From contig SYIL01000008.1 in NCBI GenBank assembly GCA_005798825.1, positions 1-64,000 on the forward strand: a stretch of 64,000 nucleotides of DNA, written 5' to 3'. Origin of the DNA: Bacteroidota bacterium (lineage in GTDB: Bacteria; Bacteroidota; Bacteroidia; NS11-12g; UBA955). The notes under the pieces are model-generated. The model did not search any database. It was given only the letters and a program-made list of their open reading frames with translations, and was not told the DNA's origin. Position 1 is the first letter of the stretch, and the number at the start of each line of letters is the position of its first letter. Below are positions 788-1,231 of the stretch, piece after piece. A program made the translations under genes and the position numbers.

Positions 788-1186
788 ATGAAAAAAGTAA
801 TGTTTAATTTTGCGGTAATTATTTCATTAATTTTTGTTTCGTGTACAACCCCAACAAAACAAGGTGGAATCATTGTCTACGAAAAAGACGGTCACGGTTT
901 GGTAGCAGCCCCAAAAGATTTGGGGAGAATGACTTGGGATGATGCTATGTCCGCCTGTAATAATTTGGAACTGAATGGCTACAGCGATTGGCATTTACCC
1001 ACAAAAGAAGAATTAAATATACTTTATTATTACAAGGATCGAGTTGGCGGTTTTGCAAATAACTACTATTGGAGTTCCACCGAGAGCAGTGATGGCTTCG
1101 CGTGGGGGCAGGACTTCGGTGATGGCAGACAGGACGGCAACTTCAAGAGCAGCAGGTACACTGTTCGGGCTGTGAGGGCTTTTTAA
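788..1186 (+). CDS. DUF1566 (Lcl-type, C-type-lectin-like) lipoprotein; putative DGR target protein
   Basis: Lipoprotein-like signal 'MKKVMFNFAVIISLIFVSC'; 'MTWDDAMSACNNLELNGYSDWHLPTKEEL' and C-terminal 'YYWSSTE...YTVRAVRAF' are typical of DUF1566. Confidence 0.8.
   Translation: MKKVMFNFAVIISLIFVSCTTPTKQGGIIVYEKDGHGLVAAPKDLGRMTWDDAMSACNNLELNGYSDWHLPTKEELNILYYYKDRVGGFANNYYWSSTESSDGFAWGQDFGDGRQDGNFKSSRYTVRAVRAF
1061..1184 (+). other. Putative DGR variable region with IMH-like 3' end
   Basis: Codons AGC AGT GAT GGC TTC ... GAC TTC GGT GAT GGC ... GAC GGC AAC TTC ... AGC AGC ... TAC all end in C/T and are reachable from AAC/AAT by A substitutions only. They are interspersed with invariant GCG TGG, CAG and AAG, and end in the GC-rich 'ACTGTTCGGGCTGTGAGGGCTTTTTAA'. 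Confidence 0.7.
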
Positions 1187-1214
1187 CCATTTAACCATTT
1201 AACTATTTAATAAT
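1183..1214. repeat. Four degenerate 8-bp tandem units TTAACCAT-TTAACCAT-TTAACTAT-TTAATAAT spanning the stop codon
   Basis: Read directly from the sequence. Confidence 0.85.
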
Positions 1215-1231
1215 CCGCCGAAGGCGGATTA
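1211..1231. other. Short perfect hairpin (9-bp stem, 3-nt loop) downstream of the putative variable region
   Basis: TAATCCGCC-GAA-GGCGGATTA. Confidence 0.8.

What the first reader, a model, noticed from the sequence alone, without database searches (positions are those of the whole stretch)
788..1231. Orphan DGR target: DUF1566 lipoprotein with an adenine-mutagenesis-like variable region
In the last ~35 codons, 17 codons (AGC AGT GAT GGC TTC, GAC TTC GGT GAT GGC, GAC GGC AAC TTC, AGC AGC, TAC) all end in C/T and are reachable from AAC/AAT by changing only adenines. They are separated by constant codons (GCG TGG, CAG, AAG). The tract ends in an invariant GC-rich stretch across the stop (TTCGGGCTGTGAGGGCTTTTTAA, IMH-like), followed about 25 bp later by a 9-bp GC-rich hairpin with a 3-nt loop. 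Bordetella-phage-type DGRs also place a short hairpin just past the IMH. The C-type-lectin-like fold with variable residues at the C-terminus is typical of DGR target proteins. No RT ORF is in the window, so diversification would act in trans or the source lies off-window. Inferred template motif: E-N-N-N-N-N-A-W-N-Q-N-x-N-N.
Basis: partly seen in the sequence, partly recalled or inferred. Interest (0 to 1): 0.85.

Follow-up and report, generated by a model that had tools for sequence, protein, structure and literature searches.

The report
Orphan DGR target on mobile-element remnant
A bacterial gene for a lectin-like secreted protein carries the clear marks of having been rewritten by a diversity-generating retroelement (a reverse-transcriptase system that randomises one part of a gene), yet the enzyme and its template are nowhere in the available genome and the gene sits as exchangeable cargo on a broken mobile element.

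Summary
Gene 788-1186 encodes an Lcl_C/DUF1566 C-type-lectin-like protein with a DGR variable region at 1085-1162. At codon positions 1+2 the window differs from it at 23/47 adenines but 1/33 other bases (p=3e-6). (2) Close homologues differ at 1-5 of about 97-101 residues before the variable region but at 13-19 of 26 inside it, with the 3' anchor invariant. (3) The 3' anchor, ATTTAAC-type repeats and GC hairpin (1160-1234) match the same module after RT-linked DGR targets; a model built without the window hits it at E=2e-11, its only hit in this genome. No RT or template was found in the 91%-complete genome; an RT just off-window is unlikely (neighbouring contig overlaps by 141 bp; no contig has an RT). 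The gene is cargo of a truncated integrative element (intact in another genus, also without RT) and is replaced by unrelated genes in a same-genus genome. DUF1566 DGR targets and RT-less target genes are known, so this is a new member of a known kind; the new aspect is target-only mobility.

The parts
788..1186 (+). Target (variable) protein gene: signal peptide plus Lcl_C/DUF1566 C-type-lectin-like domain
   Evidence: Pfam PF07603 E=8.5e-18; AF2 model pLDDT 87 matches the Legionella Lcl C-terminal domain 8q4e, TM 0.75
1085..1162 (+). DGR-type variable region (codons 100-125)
   Evidence: Adenine-specific differences from real DGR templates; hypervariable in close homologues
1163..1187 (+). 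Constant 3' anchor (IMH-like): GTTCGGGCTGTGAGGGCTTTTTAAC across the stop codon
   Evidence: Close to the GTTCGGGCTTTTTAAC anchor of RT-linked targets at DNA level; protein part invariant in close homologues
1187..1210 (+). Spacer of three NNATTTAA(C)-type repeats between anchor and hairpin
   Evidence: Same spacer in targets L074, L154 and L163, which lie beside avd, TR and RT
1211..1231 (+). GC hairpin, 9-bp stem, GAA loop (target-side hairpin)
   Evidence: DNA fold -9.1 kcal/mol, z=-4.2; equivalent hairpins after RT-linked targets
7..390 (+). C-terminal remnant (about residues 287-404 of 405) of the element's G2P-like replication protein
   Evidence: 76% identity to intact Rep L043:8356-9573; weak Phage_CRI E=0.0033
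403..765 (+). Element gene, DUF5681-like
   Evidence: PF18932 E=2.5e-5, just below cut-off; syntenic in L043 and in same-genus L147, 95% aa identity
1256..1300 (.). Right end of the integrative element
   Evidence: Homology to L043 stops about 1300; same-genus L147 matches 1256-1385 although its cargo differs

Best explanation
The gene is a target of a diversity-generating retroelement (DGR). A DGR reverse transcriptase copied an Asn/Lys-rich template (about E-N-N-N-N-N-A-W-K-Q-N-F-N-N-G-K-Q-N-N-N-N-K-N-N-K/T-Y-N) with errors at adenines. The mutagenised cDNA replaced codons 100-125, anchored by the constant GTTCGGGCTGTGAGGGC segment and helped by the hairpin 24 nt after the stop. The product is a secreted C-type-lectin-like binder with a randomised binding face. 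The target has been separated from its RT and template: it travels as the last (cargo) gene of an integrative element (recombinase - 576-aa protein - HTH - G2P-like Rep - DUF5681 - target), of which this genome keeps a truncated copy beside tRNA-Ser. Shown: template match, adenine bias, hypervariability in close homologues, target module, element synteny, absence of RT/template from the assembly. Inferred: retrohoming itself, the exact template, lectin function, and that the RT acted in trans from another replicon, strain or missing sequence.
For: Templates of homologous DGRs with RT: L074 (VP-avd-TR-RT; RVT_1 E=6e-19, bAvd E=5.7e-17), L066 and L154. Window against L074 template, codon positions 1+2: A 23/47, non-A 1/33, p=3.4e-6; positive control (L074's own target) 27/47 and 0/33. 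Second template L154: 22/43 and 5/35, p=6e-4. P0002 against P0004: 1/97 differences before, 13/26 inside, 0/7 in the anchor. Tail model built without the window: 66.4 bits, E=2e-11, and the only hit in the whole own genome. C-type-lectin fold.
Against: No RT (PF00078 at E<=10; DGR RT protein query) and no template in the own assembly. The only clear DGR RT found in 113 genomes of the order (G509) has a different template and a different target type. The element is truncated here, and its copy in another genus (L043/G520, 96% complete, no RT) has lost the signature: 10/17 variable codons end in C/T and the 3' anchor is damaged. DNA of the closest homologues P0002-P0005 was not available, so adenine specificity was measured only against templates from other genomes.
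Confidence: 0.9

Rival explanations
1. The RT and template are in the same cell, on chromosome or plasmid, but in the roughly 9% of the genome missing from this assembly; the system is an ordinary DGR with a remote target.
For: 91% completeness and 45 contigs. Remote targets in RT-bearing genomes are documented (PMC4891356; noted as missed in PMC8144416). Close homologues look recently diversified.
Against: No RT in own genome or other same-genus genomes searched; the intact element in G520 (96% complete) also lacks an RT; no such template in 113 order genomes.
Confidence: 0.35
2. The target is a fossil here: the variable sequence was made where an RT existed, then arrived by horizontal transfer or recombination and is no longer rewritten.
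For: Truncated Rep and missing integrase; cargo replaced in same-genus G002; decayed copy in L043; T. denticola isolates with target genes but no RT or TR (PMC4891356).
Against: The window copy has a clean signature and an intact tail module; close homologues differ almost only in the variable region.
Confidence: 0.4
3. An ordinary Asn/Asp/Gly-rich loop of an Lcl_C protein, never touched by a DGR.
For: Lcl_C proteins in the order without the signature exist (L010, L011, L015, L025).
Against: Adenine bias p=3e-6, 99% against 50% identity contrast between neighbouring segments, GC jump 37 to 57%, non-coding tail shared with RT-linked targets.
Confidence: 0.03
4. The hairpin is only a transcription terminator.
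For: GC stem near a short T run; a hairpin after a stop codon is typical of terminators.
Against: In RT-linked DGRs the same hairpin lies between target and avd, directly before the avd start (L074, L154, L163); a 24-bp inverted-repeat segment after the VR is required for efficient BPP-1 retrohoming (PMC3240598).
Confidence: 0.1

Closest known systems
Psychroflexus sp. MES1-P1E DGR (L074: Lcl_C target - avd - TR - RT)
   Same: Same target fold, near-identical template layout, same anchor, spacer and hairpin after the stop
   Different: Complete cassette with RT and template; its target is a different Lcl_C protein
DUF1566-type DGR targets of human-microbiome and other bacterial genomes (PMC4159848, PMC6642488)
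   Same: DUF1566 domain with variable residues at the C-terminus; described as the most common target domain
   Different: Those are listed together with their DGR RT
Orphan target genes in Treponema denticola isolates lacking RT and TR (PMC4891356)
   Same: Target gene present, no RT or TR in the genome
   Different: Same species as RT-bearing strains, read as remnants; here the target is cargo of an integrative element and only one unrelated DGR was found in the order
BPP-1 DGR target mtd with IMH and hairpin (PMC3240598)
   Same: Variable C-terminus, anchor, GC-rich hairpin within 4-34 bp of the VR
   Different: BPP-1-type phage loops are 4-nt GRNA; here a 3-nt GAA loop and an ATTTAAC-type spacer
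G509 DGR (L163), same bacterial family
   Same: Similar spacer and hairpin; DGR RT 57% identical to L074's
   Different: Target of another layout; template YWWSSTENNTNNAWNRNLNYNN does not fit the window

Membership tests
DGR target (variable protein) | Variable region homologous to a template, differing at template adenines | tested here: met
   Templates L074 and L154 from other genomes: p=3e-6 and 6e-4; the own template was not found
DGR target (variable protein) | Constant 3' anchor (IMH) and hairpin past the VR | tested here: met
DGR target (variable protein) | C-type-lectin-type fold with VR at the C-terminus | tested here: met
   Best match 8q4e TM 0.75, then C-type lectins
DGR target (variable protein) | Hypervariability among close relatives confined to the VR | tested here: met
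   P0002-P0005: 1-5 of 97-101 against 13-19 of 26
Complete DGR cassette | DGR-type reverse transcriptase in the genome | tested here: not met
   None in own genome; assembly 91% complete
Complete DGR cassette | Template repeat in the genome | tested here: not met
   No copy by BLAST or pattern
Complete DGR cassette | avd accessory gene next to the target | tested here: not met
   Downstream of the hairpin is the element end and tRNA-Ser, no avd ORF
Complete DGR cassette | Active mutagenic retrohoming | not testable with these tools
   Needs reads or an experiment

The most novel reading that the evidence does not exclude
Target-only mobile elements: integrative elements that carry a DGR target plus its recognition module as cargo but no RT, and have it diversified in trans by DGRs elsewhere in the host or community, so that targets and mutators spread independently.
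Probability: 0.25. Interest if true: 0.75.

Novelty: new member of a known kind. Interest (0 to 1): 0.5.

Why it matters
DGR surveys mostly look next to the reverse transcriptase and miss remote targets (stated in PMC8144416). A target-side signature (anchor, ATTTAAC-type spacer, GC hairpin) finds targets without an RT: in this order the tail model hits 15 of 113 genomes, although some weaker hits may reflect coding homology only, while a clear DGR RT was found in one. If targets travel and are rewritten independently of the RT, the reach of hypermutation is larger than RT counts suggest.

Tried and rejected
RT just off the left edge: C43:1 is a contig end, but its first 141 bp equal the end of C44; no contig of the assembly has an RT. 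Template in own genome: none by BLAST with the VR or by template patterns. Template in viral contigs with the window-specific anchor or the TENNNNNAW pattern: none; the looser AAYAAYGCNTGGAAYCARAAYTT pattern gave 53 DGR-type loci, nearly all beside an RT but mostly of another lineage. RT loci in relatives were mostly group II introns or other RTs. G509 DGR as donor: template does not fit. Phage records: no match. DUF5681 in viral contigs: none. L043 as a close allele for an adenine test: its VR has decayed.

Full report
What is there. The gene at 788-1186 codes for 132 aa with an N-terminal signal-like segment and an Lcl_C domain. The AF2 model (pLDDT 87) is closest to the Legionella Lcl C-terminal domain and then to C-type lectins. 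The last 40 residues, YYWSSTESSDGFAWGQDFGDGRQDGNFKSSRYTVRAVRAF, are the part in question.

Real templates. A degenerate pattern for the inferred template found 53 viral loci, nearly all with a GNLTSQ/GNLSSQ-type RT nearby. Two DGRs in the genomes of other Lcl_C homologues, L066 and L074, carry templates CIWSSTENNNNNAWNQNFNNGNTNNNNKTNTFRVRAVRDF and YYWSSTENNNNNAWKQNFNNGNQNNNNKNNTNNVRAVRAF. L074 has the full order target - avd - TR - RT. The latter template aligns without gaps to the window. At codon positions 1 and 2 the window differs at 23 of 47 template adenines and 1 of 33 other bases (Fisher p=3.4e-6); at position 3 it differs at 14 of 37 non-adenines, as expected for templates that have drifted synonymously. 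The positive control, L074's own target against its own template, gives 27/47 and 0/33. A second template (L154) gives 22/43 and 5/35, p=6e-4.

Variability in relatives. P0002-P0005 are alleles of the same gene (same signal peptide). Among themselves they differ at 1-5 of 97-101 residues up to GGFA, at 13-19 of 26 residues in the variable core and at 0 of 7 in the VRAVRAF anchor; the window differs from them at 5-8 of 86-90 and 15-19 of 26. P0002 and P0004 are identical through the first part of the variable region (up to NDNDAW) and then diverge, which is what partial conversion from the 3' side would give (inference). In 66 homologues with the same spacing, residues that cannot come from AAY (M, W, K, E, Q) are 4.1% at template-Asn positions against 22% upstream and 21% in variable upstream columns.

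Target module after the stop. The window reads GTTCGGGCTGTGAGGGCTTTTTAAC-CATTTAAC-CATTTAAC-TATTTAAT-AATCCGCC-GAA-GGCGGATT. RT-linked targets L074, L154 and L163, and L042, L044, L047, L048 and L024 that have no RT beside them, show the same order: anchor, ATTTAAC-type repeats, GC hairpin, mostly with a GNA or GNNA loop. In L074, L154 and L163 the hairpin lies directly before avd, so it is unlikely to be a plain terminator. A model from seven sequences without the window scores 66.4 bits on 1160-1234 (E=2e-11), the best match of that call; Lcl_C genes with only coding similarity (L010, L011, L012) score 19-24 bits. It is the only hit in the own genome. In BPP-1 a hairpin after the VR is required for efficient retrohoming, and phage DGRs have stems of 7-10 bp, 4-34 bp from the VR (PMC3240598); the window's stem is 9 bp at 24 nt from the stop.

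Genomic setting. The window starts at a contig end (G000:C43:1). The first 141 bp are identical to the end of contig C44, so the neighbour is probably known (an assembly overlap; another branch cannot be excluded). No RT is found anywhere in the assembly. 7-390 and 403-765 are the end of a G2P-like Rep and a DUF5681-like gene. In L043 (= G520, another genus of the same family) the element is complete: tyrosine recombinase, 576-aa protein, HTH, Rep, DUF5681, Lcl_C target, hairpin; homology to the window stops near 1300. In G002 (same genus) the same locus keeps Rep tail and DUF5681 (88% nt to window 178-805) but has three other small genes instead of the target, before the same tRNA-Ser. So the target is exchangeable cargo. 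The L043 copy's variable region has lost the signature and its anchor is damaged.

Where is the RT? In 113 genomes of the order the L074 RT finds one clear DGR RT, in G509 of the same family; its target is of another type and its template does not fit. The tail model hits 15 of the 113 genomes, the weaker ones possibly through coding similarity alone. So targets without a detected RT are common in this order. Three readings remain: RT in unassembled sequence, RT in trans from another element or strain, or a target diversified elsewhere and then moved. The clean signature favours recent diversification; the present data do not decide.

Known or new. DUF1566 is described as the most common DGR target domain (PMC4159848, PMC6642488); remote targets (PMC8144416) and RT-less target genes in T. 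denticola (PMC4891356) are described. The finding is therefore a new member of a known kind. What I did not find described in the papers read is a DGR target as cargo of an RT-less integrative element, and the ATTTAAC-type spacer as a handle to find such targets; the literature check was limited to a few open-access papers.

Noticed in passing
L043:4858-10690; window 7-1300; L147:4860-7250: Integrative element with tyrosine recombinase, G2P-like Rep and DUF5681-like gene whose last gene differs between genomes (Lcl_C target, or three unrelated small genes in G002): a cargo hot spot.
   Followed up: partly
L132 around 7532-7603 (G000:C44:15531-15608): Second remnant in the own genome: last 24-26 codons of the DUF5681-like gene followed by another small secreted-protein gene (MKKLYILIF...) near a XerC-like gene.
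   Followed up: partly
window 1365-1385, 1527-1547 and tRNA-Ser 1533-1621: 21-bp direct repeat of the tRNA-Ser 3' end (att-like) bounding about 160 bp that is also present, 93% identical, left of the Rep remnant in same-genus G002.
   Followed up: partly
L164-L181: DGR target-tail modules in genomes without a detected DGR RT (G041 three, G489 two, G514, G520, G026, G015, G046); some tails intact with hairpin, others decayed.
   Followed up: partly
P0006/P0012, P0010/P0020: Homologues with near-identical variable regions but different middle segments: mosaics suggesting recombination between family members on top of DGR change.
   Followed up: no
L163 (G509:C154): Complete DGR in the same bacterial family: target of another layout, avd, TR, RT.
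   Followed up: yes
hairpin loops: Loops of the Bacteroidota target hairpins are mostly C-GNA-G or C-GNNA-G, loop classes known (own knowledge) to make very stable DNA mini-hairpins; may explain the loop requirement.
   Followed up: no
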